Source of the DNA: Meridianimarinicoccus roseus
Lineage (GTDB): Bacteria; Pseudomonadota; Alphaproteobacteria; Rhodobacterales; Rhodobacteraceae
Direction of reading: 5' to 3'
Assembly: GCF_003172915.1 (NCBI RefSeq)
Contig: NZ_QGKU01000032.1
Span: forward strand, 124,001 to 188,000
DNA length: 64,000 nucleotides
In this document: positions 1,570-9,152 of the stretch, piece by piece
Layout of the letters: the number at the start of each line of letters is the position of its first letter
Numbering within the stretch: the stretch's first letter is position 1
Translations under genes and position numbers: made by a program
The notes under the pieces: model-generated
Seen by the model: only the letters and a program-made list of their open reading frames with translations
Told to the model about the DNA's origin: nothing
Databases searched by the model: none

Positions 1570-2100
1570 ATGAAACGCACGCTCACCACAGGTATTCTTG
1601 CAGGTTTGGCATTCGCCTTCGCGGGCCTGTCCACGCAGGCGCAGGACACCGCGAACAGGGTCGCGGCCAACACGGACTGGAGCATCTTCGTCGAGGATTC
1701 TCCGAAGCAGTGCTGGGTCGTGTCCGCGCCGAAAAAAACCGTCAACACCCAAGATGGGCGCGTCGTGGCCGTACGCCGGGGCGACATTTACATGTTCGTG
1801 TCGTTCTGGCCTGAGAGCGAACAGCTGGGCGAGGTGTCCTTCATGGGCGGCTATCCCTTCGCCGACGGGTCCACTGTGTCGCTTACGGTGGGCGACAGCG
1901 ATTTCGAGCTGTTCACCGATGGCGAACTGGCCTGGGCCGCCTCCCCCGAGGATGACCGCCGCATCGCCACCGCCATGAAGCGCGGCGTGGAGGCGGTGGT
2001 CGTTGGCCGGTCGTCGCGCGGGACGACGACGACCGACACGTTTTCGCTGATGGGCTTCACAGCGGCCTACGAGGATGCGCAAAAGCGCTGCGGTGAGTGA
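1570..2100 (+). CDS. Invasion-associated locus B (IalB) family secreted protein
   Basis: A 176-residue protein with a clear Sec signal peptide (KR, hydrophobic core, cleavage around STQAQD). The mature part contains W-SIFVEDSPKQCWVVSAPK and a late VGRSSRGTTTTDTFSLMGFTAA segment, the layout of the IalB family, which also has conserved Cys residues (CW near residue 49 and C near the C-terminus). IalB proteins are periplasmic or envelope proteins named from Bartonella invasion; in free-living Rhodobacteraceae the role is unknown. A GGAGG ribosome-binding site lies 11 nt before the ATG, and a TACAAT hexamer at 1479-1484 could be a -10 box. It ends at a shared hairpin terminator. Confidence 0.75.
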   Translation: MKRTLTTGILAGLAFAFAGLSTQAQDTANRVAANTDWSIFVEDSPKQCWVVSAPKKTVNTQDGRVVAVRRGDIYMFVSFWPESEQLGEVSFMGGYPFADGSTVSLTVGDSDFELFTDGELAWAASPEDDRRIATAMKRGVEAVVVGRSSRGTTTTDTFSLMGFTAAYEDAQKRCGE

Positions 2101-2161: not shown

Positions 2162-2833
2162 TCAAGCCTTGCGGCGCGCCCGGACGAGGCCGAGCAGACC
2201 CAGGCCAGCCGCAGCAAGCGGAAGGGCTGCCGGAACCGGAACCGGGGATGGGTCGAGCGAATTGACTGTCGTGTTGAAGTTGTCGAAGGCGATCCCGATT
2301 TGGCGCGTCCCGCCCGTGGTGGTTCCGGTGATCTCGATTTGCGAAATCAGCGCCGACAGCCCGCTGAAGCCGATCCGCGTGGCGACCGCATCGCCCGCGA
2401 GCGGGCTGTTGCCGTCAACCATCTGGGTTTCAAGCACGTTGCCGCTGGAATCCCGCGCGATGAAGGTGAATTCTTCCAGATTGGAACCCGACCCGTCGAT
2501 ATCGGCCACGTCGAACGACGCGGCGGAAGCGCCGACAGTGTAGTCGATGACAAGCGATGTGACCGTGCCGAAGTCGGAGGTCAGGAAATAGTCGCCGAAG
2601 ATTCCGTTCACTGCAGGCGTGTCGTTCGGAACGAAGCCGTCGACCGGTCCGCCCACATCGACGATGAAAAGGCCGTTGGCACTGCTGAAGGTGACGCCAA
2701 AGGCCGACTCGAACTCGGTGCCGGTAATCGCGGTATTGCTGCCGGTGAACCCGGTCTCGAAATCGAGAAGGGCCGCCTGCGCGCTGCCAACGCTGAATGC
2801 GAGCATCGCCGCTGTGGAAATGTATCTGATCAT
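2162..2833 (-). CDS. VPLPA-CTERM sorting-domain surface protein
   Basis: A 223-residue exported protein. Residues 1-20 form a signal peptide ending AQA. The body is acidic, rich in Gly, Ser, Thr and Asp, and reads as a beta-sandwich (DFETGFTGSNTAITGTEFES, repeated ITGT segments). The C-terminus has a PVPVPAALPLAAAG motif, a hydrophobic helix LGLLGLV and a terminal RARRKA cluster, the tripartite VPLPA variant of PEP-CTERM signals. In known systems an exosortase removes such a tail and delivers the protein to the cell surface or biofilm matrix. No exosortase gene is in the window. The ligand or function of the body is not recognised. A decayed relative lies at 10972-11691. Confidence 0.8.
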   Translation of the reverse strand: MIRYISTAAMLAFSVGSAQAALLDFETGFTGSNTAITGTEFESAFGVTFSSANGLFIVDVGGPVDGFVPNDTPAVNGIFGDYFLTSDFGTVTSLVIDYTVGASAASFDVADIDGSGSNLEEFTFIARDSSGNVLETQMVDGNSPLAGDAVATRIGFSGLSALISQIEITGTTTGGTRQIGIAFDNFNTTVNSLDPSPVPVPAALPLAAAGLGLLGLVRARRKA

Positions 2834-4211: not shown

Positions 4212-4340
4212 TCGCGCGGAGCTCCACCGCGTCGCTCCGGTCATGGAAACCCCACTACCTGCTCAGCTATTGGGCGACTAGGCTTCGATCCAGCTCGCGC
4301 CGGGTGCGCGGTTTTCCTGCAATTGCAAGGGGGTGGGATC

Positions 4341-7313
4341 ATGCCGTCGCTGACCCAGACCGTCGAAGGTTTCTCGTTCACATCAATTGCCGCCGTGGGC
4401 GCGCAGTTCCGCGATGCGGGTCTCGGGCAGGCGGATATCGCACCCGCGCTTGGCGCCGCGCACGCGCTGTCGCCAACGCGCGGGCTGCGGCTGGCGAAGG
4501 GTTTGCTGGCCACGGCAAACACACGCGAACAGCTTCTGGAGGATGGCGATCGCATCATCGACTGGGCGCGCGGCGGCGATGCGGTGGCCAAGCGCAGCGC
4601 GGCCCAGGCCTTTCGCCAGCAGGCCGGGCGCGGCGGAGAATTGATCTTCGTGCACAAGATCGCAAGCCTGCCCCGCGCCGACGCCCGTGCTTTCATGCGC
4701 GAACATCTCGACAGCGGCGGCGATCTTGGGATCGTTCTGGACTGGCTTCAGATGGCCGGCGCAGAACTGCGCCGCCACCCCAAGAGGCACGACACGGCCG
4801 GGTTTCTTGGTGACGTGGTCGATTTCGTTGGCGACGCGTTCAGCACGGTCGGCGACGCCATCGTGAGTGTCGGAGAAGCCGTCGCAGAGGGCGTCAAGGG
4901 GGTCGTGGATGCCATTGTCGAGGCGGGCCGAACCATCGCCGAAATGGCCGGAGCCGTGCTGTCCTGGACTGTGGAGAAGGTTGCCGACCTGGTGGAGTCG
5001 CTGATCGAGGCGGGGGAAACCGTCGCCTCCATCCTTGCCGGCGCGCTGGAGGCCGGACTCGACGCGCTGCGCAAGTTCGCCCGCGCGATGATCGAGGCGG
5101 GCCGCACGCTGGCCGAACTTGCCGCATGGGCCTTGAGCCAAGCCGCGGGCGTGCTGGCCGACGTGTTCGACGCCGTCGTGTCCACCCTTGCCGACATCCG
5201 CGATCTCGTGGTCTGGGCCGCGACGCAGACCGCCGCCGCCGTGCGCAACGTGATCGAGGCGCTGATCGATATCGGGCAGTCGGTGTCGCGGGTGCTGACC
5301 GCCATGCTGTCGGCCGCTGCCGACGTTCTGGCCGCGGCGGTGCAAGCTCTGATCGAGATCGGCAGCACGGCGGGAGAATTGCTGATCGCGGTGATCACCC
5401 AGCCGGCCGGGGCAATGCGGTCGCTGATGCAGGCGCTGCGCCAGATCGGCCGCAGCCTCGTGTCGCTGCTGGACGCGGCCCGCGACGCGGCGGCCAGTGT
5501 TCTTGAAGCCGCGGTCGATGCCGCGCTCGCCATCGGCGAAACCGTTCTGGACCTCATGGCATGGGCCGCCACCCAGGTCGCCGAAGCCGCACGCCGCGTG
5601 CTGGACACTATGCTGCGCGCAGGGCTGCGGCTGATCGATGTTTTCGCATCGCTTGCGCAGGCCACGGTGTCGGTGATGCGCAAGGCGGTGCAGGCCGCGT
5701 TCGACCTTGGCCGCACTTTCGCCGGGCTGGTCGCGGAACTGTACGATCTTGCCACCGACGTGCTGGCAGACGTGATCCGCGCCGCGATCGCGCTTGGCCG
5801 AACGGTGGTGGAATTCATCGGCGCGGTGCTGGAATTCACCTATGCCGGGGCGGTCAAGCTGATGCGCGCGGCGATGGATGCCGGGATAGCGGTGGCCGAG
5901 CTTCTGGGGAATGTCGTGACCGAAGGGTATTTCGCGCTCCGCAAGATCGTGAACGGCATCCTCGATGCCGCCGGCCCGCTGGGCGACGTGCTGCAATGGG
6001 CGCTCGATGCGGCCGAGGACATGGTCAGCGAGGTCTGGCACGATACACTTCTGGCCATCCGCTACGCGCAGGAGAAGATCACCGGCGCGCTGGACTGGGC
6101 CGTCGAAAAGGGGCGCGAGGCGCTGGGGGCGCTTCTCTTCGCATGGGAAAGTATCGGCGAACGGCTGAGCGACGCCTACCGCCATCTTGCCGCGCTGGCG
6201 CGCCGGGTTGGCGACAGGGTGTGGGATTTCCTCGGCTGGGCTACCTTCGTGCTGGAAAACAGCGTGGACTACCTGCTGAATTTCCTCGAGAACGATTTCA
6301 TCGAAGGGATCGCCAAGGTCGCCGAAGGGCTGCTGCGCGCGGGGCATGCGCTGGCCGACCTGATGGTCAGCATCGCCGACGAGAGCGCGCAACTGGTGCT
6401 GGAAGTGGTGCGCGGCGCGCTGCGTGCGGGTGCGGTGATCGGCGATCTGCTGATAGAAACCCTGCGCCAGCCCGATGCGTTTCTCGACCACGTCGCGGCG
6501 GCGATCGAGGCGCTTGGTAACACGATCGGCGACATGTTCCGCGCTGTGCAGGCGCGCGGTGCGGCGATGATCGACGCTCTGACGCTTTCGCTGCGGCGGC
6601 TCGGCCGCTCCGCGCAACTGATCTTGCAAGGCGCGGCGGAGATCGGTGGCGGGCTTCTCGGCGCGGTGATCGCGGTGCTGCTGTCCACGCTGCCCAGCTT
6701 CCGACCGCTTGTGGCGGTGGAACGCGCCGACGCGGCGCTGGTGTTCGGCGACACGATCGACCTGGACCGGGTGTTCATTTCGGCCGAGGGGCCAGGCAAC
6801 GACGTGCTGTTCTGGGTCCAGGACACGCTGAACGGAAATCCGGACAGCCGGGCCTTCGTCGGCCTCAACCTGATCAACTTCGACATCGACGACGGGATCG
6901 AGATCGATGACGCGGGCACAATCGGGCTGGAACGATGGACCTTCATCCACGAAATGACCCATGTCTGGCAGGGCGTGACCGAAGGCCCGGTCTATATTGC
7001 GCACGCCATCGGGCTGATGCCGCAGGGCAATGCCGCCTACAACTACGGCTACGCGGACGGGGCCAACGTTACGCTGATATCGGATCACAAGACCCCAGCG
7101 ACGCAGCTGGTGTTCGCGAATGCTGACGGCACCCTTCTGGGCGCCGGCGCTGAAACGGCGCTGCAGAACGGCGGCGGCGACATCACGGCGTTCAACGTGG
7201 AACAACAAGGGCAGATCGTGATGCACTGGTTCGCCCGCGCACACCTCTCGGTGCCGCCGATGCCGACCGCCGACTGGGACCCGTATATCGACGCGGTGCG
7301 CAATGCAGCATGA
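4341..7313 (+). CDS. Giant 29-residue-repeat helical protein with C-terminal HExxH metallopeptidase-like domain
   Basis: A 990-residue protein I do not recognise as a named family. Residues 1-150 form a mixed alpha domain. Residues 159-775 are Ala-rich amphipathic helix in tandem units of 29 residues (consensus: two hydrophobics, x, A, hydrophobic, hydrophobic, acidic, A/I, G, R, T/S, then L/V, x, E, L), with 13 contiguous units from 188 to 564 and four more from 660. Residues 785-990 are a separate domain: LVFGDTIDLDRVFIS, then FIHEMTHVWQ with HExxH at 870-874, then FNVEQQGQIV with Glu 954 as a likely third zinc ligand. This resembles the DUF4157 / 'vgr-related' peptidase-like domains. No signal peptide or cysteine network is visible. 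ATG at 4341 is chosen because AAGGGGG precedes it; an in-frame TTG at 4323 has nothing before it. It overlaps the next gene by 11 bp. Confidence 0.85.
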   Translation: MPSLTQTVEGFSFTSIAAVGAQFRDAGLGQADIAPALGAAHALSPTRGLRLAKGLLATANTREQLLEDGDRIIDWARGGDAVAKRSAAQAFRQQAGRGGELIFVHKIASLPRADARAFMREHLDSGGDLGIVLDWLQMAGAELRRHPKRHDTAGFLGDVVDFVGDAFSTVGDAIVSVGEAVAEGVKGVVDAIVEAGRTIAEMAGAVLSWTVEKVADLVESLIEAGETVASILAGALEAGLDALRKFARAMIEAGRTLAELAAWALSQAAGVLADVFDAVVSTLADIRDLVVWAATQTAAAVRNVIEALIDIGQSVSRVLTAMLSAAADVLAAAVQALIEIGSTAGELLIAVITQPAGAMRSLMQALRQIGRSLVSLLDAARDAAASVLEAAVDAALAIGETVLDLMAWAATQVAEAARRVLDTMLRAGLRLIDVFASLAQATVSVMRKAVQAAFDLGRTFAGLVAELYDLATDVLADVIRAAIALGRTVVEFIGAVLEFTYAGAVKLMRAAMDAGIAVAELLGNVVTEGYFALRKIVNGILDAAGPLGDVLQWALDAAEDMVSEVWHDTLLAIRYAQEKITGALDWAVEKGREALGALLFAWESIGERLSDAYRHLAALARRVGDRVWDFLGWATFVLENSVDYLLNFLENDFIEGIAKVAEGLLRAGHALADLMVSIADESAQLVLEVVRGALRAGAVIGDLLIETLRQPDAFLDHVAAAIEALGNTIGDMFRAVQARGAAMIDALTLSLRRLGRSAQLILQGAAEIGGGLLGAVIAVLLSTLPSFRPLVAVERADAALVFGDTIDLDRVFISAEGPGNDVLFWVQDTLNGNPDSRAFVGLNLINFDIDDGIEIDDAGTIGLERWTFIHEMTHVWQGVTEGPVYIAHAIGLMPQGNAAYNYGYADGANVTLISDHKTPATQLVFANADGTLLGAGAETALQNGGGDITAFNVEQQGQIVMHWFARAHLSVPPMPTADWDPYIDAVRNAA
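4815..6665 (+). repeat. Tandem 87-bp coding repeats (29-residue helical units)
   Basis: About 17-20 units of 87 bp, each coding one 29-residue amphipathic helical repeat. Units are exactly in register with no insertions for 13 units between 4902 and 6032 (1131 bp = 13 x 87). Example unit starts are VVDAIVEAG, LVESLIEAG, FARAMIEAG, VIEALIDIG, LMQALRQIG, AVDAALAIG and VIRAAIALG. Three diverged units follow (6033-6293), then an 8-residue slip, then four clear units again (6318-6665). DNA identity between units is low, so the repeats are old and kept by selection on the protein. Confidence 0.85.
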
Positions 7314-7833
7314 CCGCCGCCCTGCGCGCGGCCGCGTTGTCGTCGCCGCGCAGTGGGATCCGGTCTTCATGGCGGAAGCCGCGCGATGGCGCGCCGCGCC
7401 CTGCCGCGCCACCTGCTTCGACGGGGCCGACACGGACCGCGCGGGCCTGTTCGCGGCGCTGCGGCCGGGCGATACGCTGGTCTATCTGGGCCACGCCACG
7501 CCGCGCGCTTGGCTGGGGTTTCGCGGCATCCGCGCCGATCATCTGCCGCCGCTGACCGCGCCGCTAGCCTGTGTGATCGCACTGACCTGCCACGGAACGG
7601 CACCGGACGGGGTGGGGGCAGCCTGGGTCGACAAGGGGTTGGCCCATGCCGCCACCGGACCGCGCGGACCAGTCGCCACGGACTTGCTGCTCAGGGTCGC
7701 CGCCGATCTGCGCGACCTTTTCGGCGCACGCAAGCCCGACACCGCCGGACGCACAGCCGCCGACGTGGCAGCCCGCGCTCAGCGCGCGGGAGCGGACTTC
7801 GGGCTGCTGTTCTCCGCACCCTGCCGGGTCTGA
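7303..7833 (+). CDS. Small caspase/CHAT-like (clan CD) predicted cysteine protease
   Basis: A 176-residue protein, start ATG inside the end of the repeat gene (11-bp overlap, so probably translationally coupled). The centre reads LVYLGHATPRAW (His 64 after a hydrophobic strand) and, 32 residues on, ACVIALTCHGTA (Cys 96 after a hydrophobic strand). A hydrophobic block ending in H-x and a second ending in C is the clan CD peptidase layout seen in CHAT, gingipain and caspase domains, and the following GLAHAATGPRGPVATDLLL fits a CHAT core. It is much shorter than most CHAT proteins and has no repeats. Its 3' end overlaps the oppositely oriented UbiB-like gene by 55 bp. Function is inference only; substrate might be its neighbour. 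Confidence 0.65.
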   Translation: MQHDRRPARGRVVVAAQWDPVFMAEAARWRAAPCRATCFDGADTDRAGLFAALRPGDTLVYLGHATPRAWLGFRGIRADHLPPLTAPLACVIALTCHGTAPDGVGAAWVDKGLAHAATGPRGPVATDLLLRVAADLRDLFGARKPDTAGRTAADVAARAQRAGADFGLLFSAPCRV

Positions 7834-9152
7834 AGATAGGGGCGGATCAGGTCCGACACCGGCACCCGCGCGCCCAGCCGCGTCGCAAGCAGAAACATCC
7901 CCGCCACCTTTCGCTGCAGATAGAGCGTGTCCATCGGCGGGATCGTCCAGAAATCGCGCCCCTCGCCCAGAGCCATTCCCTTGGCGCGAAGTCGCGCGGC
8001 AAGATCGGACGCTCCGAAATCGAACCGGCCGGGCGCGCGCAGCGGCACCATGACCATCTCGATCATCTCCATCAGGATCGCTTCCTGCGCGGACGTGGTG
8101 CGAGCGTCGATGACGCCGACCTCGCGGGCAGCGGCGGCGGTGGCCACCCGGTCCCCAGCGACCCCGGCGCACAGCAGCCGCCCGAACGCCGCAACCACGT
8201 CTGTTGGAAATTCCCGCGCCGCCCCGAAATCCAGCAGGATCACCCGGCCGGTGTCGCCGCACACACGGTAGTTGGCGAAATTCGGATCGGTTTGCATCAG
8301 GCGGAATTCGAACAACTCGCGCAGGACCAGCGCAACGAGCCGCGTCATCACGCGGTCCCGGTCGGCCTGCGGGGCTTGCGCCATGTCCTCCACCGGGCGA
8401 CCGGGCAGATAGGTCATGGCCAGGATGTCGGCGGTCACAAGCTCCGGCCGCAGCTCCGGCACAGCGAATTCGGGCGCATCGGCCAGGAGCCTCCCGAAGC
8501 GCGAAAGGTAGTCCGCCTCGCGCCGATAATCCGCCTCTTCGTGCAACTGCCGCTTCGCTTCGGCCAGCAGTGGCGAGATGTCGAGGTCGCGGGGCAGCAG
8601 GCCGGTCATCCGGATCAGCCCCGCCACGTTGTCCACGTCGCTGTCGATGCTGCGTCGCACGCCCGGATACTGCACTTTGATGGCAAGCTCCACGCCGTCC
8701 TTCGTGCGGGCGCGGTGGACCTGCCCGATGGAGGCCGCAGCAATGGGCCGCACGTCGAACCGCTCGAAACGACCGGTAAAATCAGCTCCCCAAGCCGCCG
8801 TCAAAACGCCGCGAAGCTGGCGCGGCGGCATGAAATCCGCCTGCGCGCGCAACCGCGACAGGATCTCGGCCAGTTCGGGTGGAAGAACGTCGCCGGCTTC
8901 CATCGACACAAGCTGCCCGACCTTCATCGCCGCGCCGCGCATCCGCGCAAGTTCGTCCGTGACCCGGCGCGCATTGGCTGGGGTCAGCAGAAGCTCCTGC
9001 AGGGTCGGGCGGCGGCCCTGCAGGGCCTGCCGCGCGCCCGCCATCGCCACGTTGCCCGCGACCCCACCCGCCAGACCGCCGAAGCGCGCAAAACGCGACA
9101 GCCGACCGCTGGGCACGGCAAGGCTGCGGGACTGGGTGGGACGATCGGTCAT
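7779..9152 (-). CDS. ABC1/AarF/UbiB (ADCK) family atypical kinase
   Basis: A 457-residue protein-kinase-like protein. The family's KxGQ motif is KVGQ at 77-80, the Ala-rich loop is AAASIGQVHRA at 138-148 in place of a Gly-rich loop, the nucleotide Lys is in AIKVQYPGV, and the metal-binding triplet appears as LLDFGAA. The usual DPHPGN catalytic segment is DPNFANY, a mild deviation. Family members act in ubiquinone biosynthesis or in lipid and stress metabolism as ATPases. Rhodobacteraceae usually carry a separate membrane-anchored UbiB; this copy lacks C-terminal transmembrane helices, so it is more likely a paralogue. It overlaps the CHAT-like gene tail to tail. Confidence 0.85.
   Translation of the reverse strand: MTDRPTQSRSLAVPSGRLSRFARFGGLAGGVAGNVAMAGARQALQGRRPTLQELLLTPANARRVTDELARMRGAAMKVGQLVSMEAGDVLPPELAEILSRLRAQADFMPPRQLRGVLTAAWGADFTGRFERFDVRPIAAASIGQVHRARTKDGVELAIKVQYPGVRRSIDSDVDNVAGLIRMTGLLPRDLDISPLLAEAKRQLHEEADYRREADYLSRFGRLLADAPEFAVPELRPELVTADILAMTYLPGRPVEDMAQAPQADRDRVMTRLVALVLRELFEFRLMQTDPNFANYRVCGDTGRVILLDFGAAREFPTDVVAAFGRLLCAGVAGDRVATAAAAREVGVIDARTTSAQEAILMEMIEMVMVPLRAPGRFDFGASDLAARLRAKGMALGEGRDFWTIPPMDTLYLQRKVAGMFLLATRLGARVPVSDLIRPYLQTRQGAENSSPKSAPAR

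What the first reader, a model, noticed from the sequence alone, without database searches (positions are those of the whole stretch)
4341..7833. Two-gene module: giant 29-residue-repeat helical metallopeptidase-like protein overlapped by a caspase/CHAT-like protein
Seen: a 990-residue protein (repeats plus HExxH domain) and a 176-residue protein with a clan CD-like His-Cys dyad, overlapping by 11 bp in a core gene context. Inference: the small protease may process or be controlled by the large protein. A protease paired with a membrane-active or surface-coating amphipathic protein recalls gasdermin-caspase pairs and eCIS cargo (DUF4157) proteins, but no known system I can name has this composition. 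It could be a defence, cell-death, envelope-coating or secretion device.
Basis: partly seen in the sequence, partly recalled or inferred. Interest (0 to 1): 0.86.

Follow-up and report, generated by a model that had tools for sequence, protein, structure and literature searches.

The report
Rod-borne metalloprotease paired with caspase-like protease
Two overlapping bacterial genes encode a ~1000-residue protein that carries a toxin-type zinc protease at the end of a very long helical rod, and a small caspase-like protease that always travels with it across distant bacteria, which looks like an undescribed protease-controls-effector device.

Summary
Gene 1 (4341-7313, 990 aa) has an N-terminal helical domain, a ~627-residue rod of 29-residue repeats, and a C-terminal zinc metallopeptidase domain. 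That domain belongs to the VgrG2b/Tpe toxin family (profile E 8.9e-8 to PDB 6h56; structural Z 12.4; HExxH plus the distal Glu ligand). Gene 2 (7303-7833, 176 aa) overlaps it by 11 bp. Its model has a clan CD (gingipain/separase/caspase) fold, with invariant H64 and C96.

The pair is a real but rare module. Twelve loci in Bacteroidota, Betaproteobacteria and this Rhodobacterales-like genus encode the large protein, and all encode the small one next to it. No solitary small gene was found in the sampled genomes. Pairwise identities of the two proteins correlate (r = 0.98). In nine loci an acyl-carrier-protein gene and a ketosynthase gene follow; the window copy lacks them. Rod length is nearly constant across phyla at ~35% identity. 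In a sister species the same site holds a caspase-EACC1-type gene, a known conflict-system family.

Tape-measure and phasin resemblances are largely compositional. Best reading: a protease-controlled metallopeptidase effector, probably a conflict or self-killing device. Anatomy and pairing are shown; mechanism is inferred.

The parts
4327..4337 (+). probable ribosome-binding site of the large gene (AAGGGGGTGGG)
   Evidence: sequence
4341..7313 (+). large gene, 990 aa: helical domain, 29-residue-repeat rod, VgrG2b-type metallopeptidase domain
4341..4775 (+). N-terminal helical domain, residues 1-145 (pLDDT mostly 67-88)
   Evidence: family-specific, conserved in all relatives
4806..6686 (+). 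rod, residues 156-782: about 21 repeats of 29 residues, modelled as near-continuous helix (low confidence, pLDDT 30-70)
6693..7310 (+). C-terminal metallopeptidase domain, residues 785-990, VgrG2b C-ter/Tpe family
6948..6962 (+). HEMTH zinc-binding/catalytic motif, residues 870-874
   Evidence: invariant in 11 homologues; aligns with HEMTH of 6h56
7200..7202 (+). E954, predicted third zinc ligand (NVEQQGQI aligns with NIEQQGDI of VgrG2b, whose ligand is E983)
7303..7833 (+). small gene, 176 aa: clan CD (C25-like) cysteine protease domain; lacks the ~115-aa N-terminal region and the IGDP motif of its 316-340-aa homologues
7303..7313 (.). 11-bp overlap of the two genes (same 11 bp in G006)
7492..7494 (+). 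H64, predicted catalytic His (LGHAT; GHG in relatives)
   Evidence: invariant in 12 homologues
7588..7590 (+). C96, predicted nucleophile
   Evidence: invariant in 12 homologues

Best explanation
A two-component proteolytic effector device. The large protein holds a VgrG2b/Tpe-type zinc endopeptidase at the end of a fixed-length rod of amphipathic helix (about 620 residues; ~93 nm if it were one straight helix), which probably self-assembles or lies on a membrane. The small clan CD protease, whose gene overlaps it and is probably translationally coupled, is its dedicated regulator: on a signal it cleaves the large protein, freeing or activating the metallopeptidase and/or the rod, which then damages the producing cell (abortive defence) or a target. 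Shown: domain anatomy, conserved catalytic residues, obligate pairing and co-divergence, purifying selection, sporadic distribution, and replacement at the same site by a caspase gene of the EACC1-associated type in a sister species. Inferred: that the small protein cleaves the large one, the trigger, the target and the biological role.
For: Metallopeptidase domain is in a toxin family: profile match to the VgrG2b effector domain E 8.9e-8, VIA Z 12.4 over 152 residues at 27% identity, all four catalytic/zinc positions invariant. Small protein: AlphaFold2 pLDDT 76, pTM 0.78; all 50 rows shown are clan CD proteins (RgpB 11.5, separase 11.4, SAVED-CHAT 10.6, caspase-7 9.1, Craspase CHAT 8.9); homologues pass Pfam Peptidase_C25. 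Pairing 12/12, with no solitary small gene in the family, class, order and phylum samples; identity matrices correlate at 0.98. dN/dS 0.15 and 0.17. Rare and scattered over phyla. Same rlmN/ubiB-like interval in G002 carries an EACC1-associated caspase above the NCBIfam cut-off, a known conflict-system family (PMC7159879). Precedent: proteases, including caspases, that activate partner effectors (PMC12799240).
Against: No PADLOC defence hit for the small protein; the only hit of the large one is a weak coiled-coil match to ZorA. No defence genes were seen beside the distant homologues, whose neighbours look housekeeping. Nine of ten distant loci add ACP and ketosynthase, which suggests lipid or metabolite chemistry. 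The site swap rests on one sister genome. In known Tpe modules the downstream gene is an immunity protein, so the small protein could be an inhibitor. No cleavage data exist.
Confidence: 0.38

Rival explanations
1. A lipid- or granule-associated scaffold: the amphipathic rod coats a membrane or lipid body or organises an acyl-ACP/ketosynthase pathway, and the two peptidases mature or remodel it. The two-gene form in this genus has lost the biosynthetic part or uses host enzymes.
For: ACP, ketosynthase with the Cys-His-His set and a short Cys-less KS-like protein follow the pair. Rod passes the Phasin_2 cut-off in several relatives (50.7 bits in L006). Wide hydrophobic stripe.
Against: Register-preserving shuffles of the L006 rod also pass the phasin cut-off at 28.8-31.0 bits, so much of the match is composition. 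The KS-like partner is absent from the genomes of the window, G006 and L014. The metallopeptidase is kin to a toxin.
Confidence: 0.27
2. A type VI (or other contractile) secretion cargo: the rod and N-domain load the metallopeptidase for delivery into rivals, and the small protein is its immunity or processing factor.
For: Same domain is fused to VgrG in L060 and L039 and is a T6SS toxin in P. aeruginosa. The window genome and G006 have a T6SS sheath gene.
Against: VipB found in only 4 of 11 module-bearing genomes (some are incomplete MAGs and divergent T6SS types may be missed). No VgrG or PAAR gene seen beside the pair. A ~1000-residue protein with a long rod is an unusual cargo. The small protein looks cytoplasmic and is a protease, unlike the periplasmic immunity protein PA0261.
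Confidence: 0.17
3. The small gene is a decaying remnant of the C25-like protein and the large protein acts alone in this genus.
For: It lacks the N-terminal ~115 aa and the IGDP motif of its homologues and is diverged (21-28% identity).
Against: His and Cys invariant, intact in two species, dN/dS about 0.17 over 135 codons, confident complete clan CD core.
Confidence: 0.08

Closest known systems
VgrG2b C-terminal / Tpe1 metallopeptidase effectors (PDB 6h56; PMC6899460)
   Same: C-terminal domain fold, HExxH plus distal Glu, profile match E 8.9e-8
   Different: carried on a 29-residue-repeat rod instead of VgrG/PAAR; downstream gene is a clan CD protease, not a periplasmic immunity protein; present in genomes without a detected T6SS sheath gene
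Peptidase C25 (gingipain) and other clan CD proteases (separase, CHAT, caspase)
   Same: fold, His-Cys dyad, Pfam C25 cut-off passed by the 316-340-aa homologues tested
   Different: short protein with no secretion signal seen, lacks the rest of gingipain; window copy itself has no Pfam match
caspase-EACC1 two-gene conflict system (PMC7159879; NF047832)
   Same: two-gene layout with a clan CD protease; occupies the same genomic interval in sister genome G002
   Different: different protease family (C14) and different partner; the partner gene in G002 was not identified as EACC1 by profile
protease-activated effector pairs (bacterial gasdermin-protease, Craspase-Csx30, canu caspase-nuclease; PMC12799240)
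   Same: protease gene next to a candidate effector, co-divergence of the pair
   Different: effector here is itself a protease on a long rod; no cleavage shown; no gasdermin fold
FabF/AmcF-type ketosynthase with ACP (type II FAS/PKS-like)
   Same: tail genes in most homologous loci match these families
   Different: below equivalog cut-offs; linked to two peptidases; absent in the window locus

Membership tests
VgrG2b/Tpe metallopeptidase family | sequence and fold similarity to the VgrG2b effector domain | tested here: met
VgrG2b/Tpe metallopeptidase family | HExxH plus distal Glu zinc ligand | tested here: met
   H870, E871, H874, E954 invariant in 11 homologues
VgrG2b/Tpe metallopeptidase family | adjacent periplasmic/envelope-targeted immunity gene | tested here: not met
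   adjacent gene is a clan CD protease domain with no N-terminal signal apparent in its sequence
VgrG2b/Tpe metallopeptidase family | delivery by T6SS (VgrG/PAAR fusion or T6SS locus) | tested here: inconclusive
   no fusion; sheath gene in 4 of 11 genomes
VgrG2b/Tpe metallopeptidase family | toxicity in the bacterial periplasm | not testable with these tools
   needs expression assay
Clan CD cysteine peptidases | caspase-haemoglobinase fold | tested here: met
Clan CD cysteine peptidases | His then Cys catalytic dyad at the ends of adjacent strands | tested here: met
   H64 after strand 58-63, C96 after strand 90-95, invariant in 12
Peptidase family C25 | Pfam PF01364 above gathering score | tested here: inconclusive
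   met by the three homologues tested, L006, L010, L014; window protein has no hit
CHAT (PF12770) | profile match | tested here: not met
   no hit at E up to 1, although the fold is related
phage tape measure protein | homology beyond periodic composition, phage context | tested here: not met
   register-preserving shuffles give similar hits; no phage or viral full-length relative
Phasin_2 (PF09361) | profile match beyond composition | tested here: inconclusive
   real L006 50.7 bits, shuffled rods 28.8-31.0 bits, cut-off 24.9; one shuffled window rod gave no hit
eCIS core / DUF4157 (PF13699) | profile match above cut-off | tested here: not met
   L006 only 13.4 bits against cut-off 22; window no hit
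bacterial gasdermin-protease pair | gasdermin pore-forming fold in the partner | tested here: not met
   partner is helical domain, rod and zincin; no gasdermin in the Pfam results and no such fold in the model

The most novel reading that the evidence does not exclude
A previously undescribed immunity or cell-death device in which a clan CD protease licenses a toxin-type metalloprotease mounted on a fixed-length helical rod, with a lipid-modifying (ACP-ketosynthase) arm in most lineages: two proteases in series plus an acyl-chain enzyme, unlike any known defence system.
Probability: 0.3. Interest if true: 0.85.

Novelty: new variant of a known kind. Interest (0 to 1): 0.64.

Why it matters
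It places a toxin-type metallopeptidase family, known mainly as T6SS cargo, in a new intracellular-looking architecture next to a caspase-like protease that may control it. This bears on the noted puzzle that VgrG2b-like domains occur in bacteria that rarely have a T6SS (PMC6899460). The rod keeps its number of repeats across phyla at ~35% identity, which suggests length matters. Both active sites are predicted, so the mechanism is directly testable with point mutants.

Tried and rejected
Phage tape measure: hits to several tape-measure families (best E 2.2e-12) are largely reproduced by shuffles that keep only the 29-residue register (best 6.8e-11 and 1.6e-7), so rejected. Phasin granule protein: largely composition, not proven. 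ZorA hit in PADLOC (7.9e-7): same rod region, regarded as coiled-coil similarity; not shuffled as a control. General defence hot spot after rlmN: 30 relatives read; only G002, besides G000 and G006, has a clan CD gene recognised there, others have unrelated-looking genes judged by eye, so the idea is limited to this genus. Multi-core peptide precursor: repeats of different index are only 15-17% identical while same-index repeats are 34%, so no repeated cleavage unit is evident. Viral, phage and plasmid origins: no full-length relative. Pfam search of the N-domain and of the metallopeptidase domain alone: no hits. Literature searches for a protease-ketosynthase operon of this kind found nothing relevant.
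Full report
OBSERVATION. The window contains the two ORFs described: large, 4341-7313 (+), 990 aa; small, 7303-7833 (+), 176 aa, overlapping by 11 bp. The ATG at 4341 has a good ribosome-binding site and is the start conserved in the sister genome G006, so it is preferred over the upstream TTG at 4323. The neighbours are rlmN upstream and, tail-to-tail, a UbiB/ABC1-kinase-like gene (7779-9152, -).

REPEATS. Residues 156-782 repeat with period 29: identity at lags 29, 58, 87 and 116 is 0.19-0.21, against 0.10 on average and at most 0.149 in 500 shuffles; the hydrophobic period is 3.63 residues in all 11 homologues. The rod spans 612-613 residues in the ten distant homologues and 627 in the window, with an almost gapless alignment. 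Same-index repeats across species are 34% identical, different repeats 15-17%. So repeat number and order are old and kept, not turning over. AlphaFold2 with 11 sequences draws a nearly continuous helix there, but at pLDDT 30-70, so hairpins or a multi-helix assembly remain possible.

C-TERMINAL DOMAIN. A profile of the 11 large proteins matches the effector domain of P. aeruginosa VgrG2b (6h56) at E 8.9e-8. The model aligns to it with Z 12.4, 152 residues, 3.9 A, 27% identity, the top row for this model, although the domain model is only moderately confident. HEMTHVWQ and the EQQ motif with E954 correspond to H935/E936/H939/E983 of VgrG2b. The domain also occurs alone in sphingomonads and at the end of VgrG proteins in L060 and L039. 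The VgrG2b authors noted that sphingomonad copies suggest a role beyond T6SS and that orthologues are annotated DUF4157 (PMC6899460).

SMALL PROTEIN. Relatives (316-340 aa) reach Pfam Peptidase_C25 above its cut-off (24.6-32.4 bits, cut-off 23) and match gingipain and PorU weakly by profile. The window protein has no Pfam C25 match, but its model (pLDDT 76, pTM 0.78) aligns to RgpB (Z 11.5), separase (11.4), SAVED-CHAT (10.6), caspases (up to 9.1) and Craspase CHAT (8.9); every row shown belongs to clan CD. Foldseek alone gave weaker E-values (best 2.7e-4, SAVED-CHAT). H64 and C96 are invariant in 12 proteins. The window and G006 versions lack the N-terminal ~115 residues and the IGDP motif of the longer relatives.

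THE MODULE. Together with the window and G006 this makes 12 loci, in Bacteroidota, Betaproteobacteria and this genus, and in all 12 the small-protein gene follows directly. The small protein occurs in 2 of 147 relatives, 1 of 345 genomes of the class of L006, 2 of 349 of the order of L010, 1 of 385 of the window's class and 1 of 398 of its phylum; the hits in each sample are genomes that carry the whole pair. Identities of large and small proteins correlate at 0.98, which shared species history would partly produce anyway. In nine of the ten distant loci an ACP gene and a ketosynthase gene (cut by the contig end in L008) follow, and in eight a short KS-like gene lacking the active Cys. L014, G006 and the window have only the pair at the locus, and no KS-like partner elsewhere in those three genomes.

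SITE. In G006 the pair sits at the same place. In G002 the same rlmN/ubiB-like interval holds a 533-aa caspase that passes the NCBIfam model 'caspase, EACC1-associated type' (145.7 bits, cut-off 140) and a 133-aa protein without a Pfam hit. EACC1-caspase pairs are proposed conflict systems (PMC7159879). One clan CD module replacing another at one site is suggestive, but it is one case. Thirty further relatives show other genes after rlmN.

SELECTION. dN/dS between G000 and G006 is about 0.15 (large) and 0.17 (small, 135 codons), similar to the neighbouring ubiB-like gene at 0.13. dS is near saturation (1.3-1.7), so these are approximate. Both genes are maintained.

MECHANISM. The most economical reading is a dedicated protease-effector pair: the coupled clan CD protease cuts or licenses the rod-borne metallopeptidase. 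Known examples of proteases activating partner effectors make this plausible (PMC12799240), but nothing here shows cleavage, trigger or target. The ACP-ketosynthase tail keeps a lipid-scaffold reading alive. The T6SS reading is weakened because a sheath gene was found in only 4 of 11 module-bearing genomes.

CONTROLS. Tape-measure hits persist after shuffling within the 29-residue register, and phasin hits persist at lower score, so neither is used as evidence of kinship.

NOVELTY. The protease domains, ACP and KS are in known families; the N-terminal domain and rod are not assigned to one. The combination (rod, Tpe-type metallopeptidase, clan CD partner, optional ACP-KS arm) was not found in the papers searched; that library lacks most subscription journals.

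Noticed in passing
L093:7593-9595 (G002, between rlmN and ubiB-like gene): EACC1-associated-type caspase (533 aa) plus a 133-aa protein sit at the position where the window has its module; possible exchange of conflict modules at one site.
   Followed up: partly
window 7779-9152 (-): UbiB/ABC1-kinase-like gene overlaps the 3' end of the small gene tail-to-tail; among seven same-genus genomes a close homologue was found only in the three that carry a clan CD protease gene at this site (G000, G006, G002).
   Followed up: partly
L005-L013, genes downstream of the pair (e.g. L006:11942-13730): ACP, FabF/AmcF-like ketosynthase with intact Cys-His-His and a short Cys-less KS-like protein form a conserved tail; function unknown.
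   Followed up: partly
N-termini of large homologues L005-L013: Lys/Ala/Pro-rich tail of about 40-100 residues before the helical domain, absent from the window protein; resembles nucleic-acid-binding tails.
   Followed up: no
L039:5187-8534, L053, L060:5136-8519: VgrG proteins (Ralstonia, Pseudomonas) ending in the same metallopeptidase domain.
   Followed up: partly
window 2162-2833 (-): secreted-looking protein with a PEP-CTERM/VPLPA-type C-terminal sorting signal, just below the Pfam cut-off.
   Followed up: no
window 1570-2100 (+): IalB-family protein (PF06776) above cut-off.
   Followed up: no
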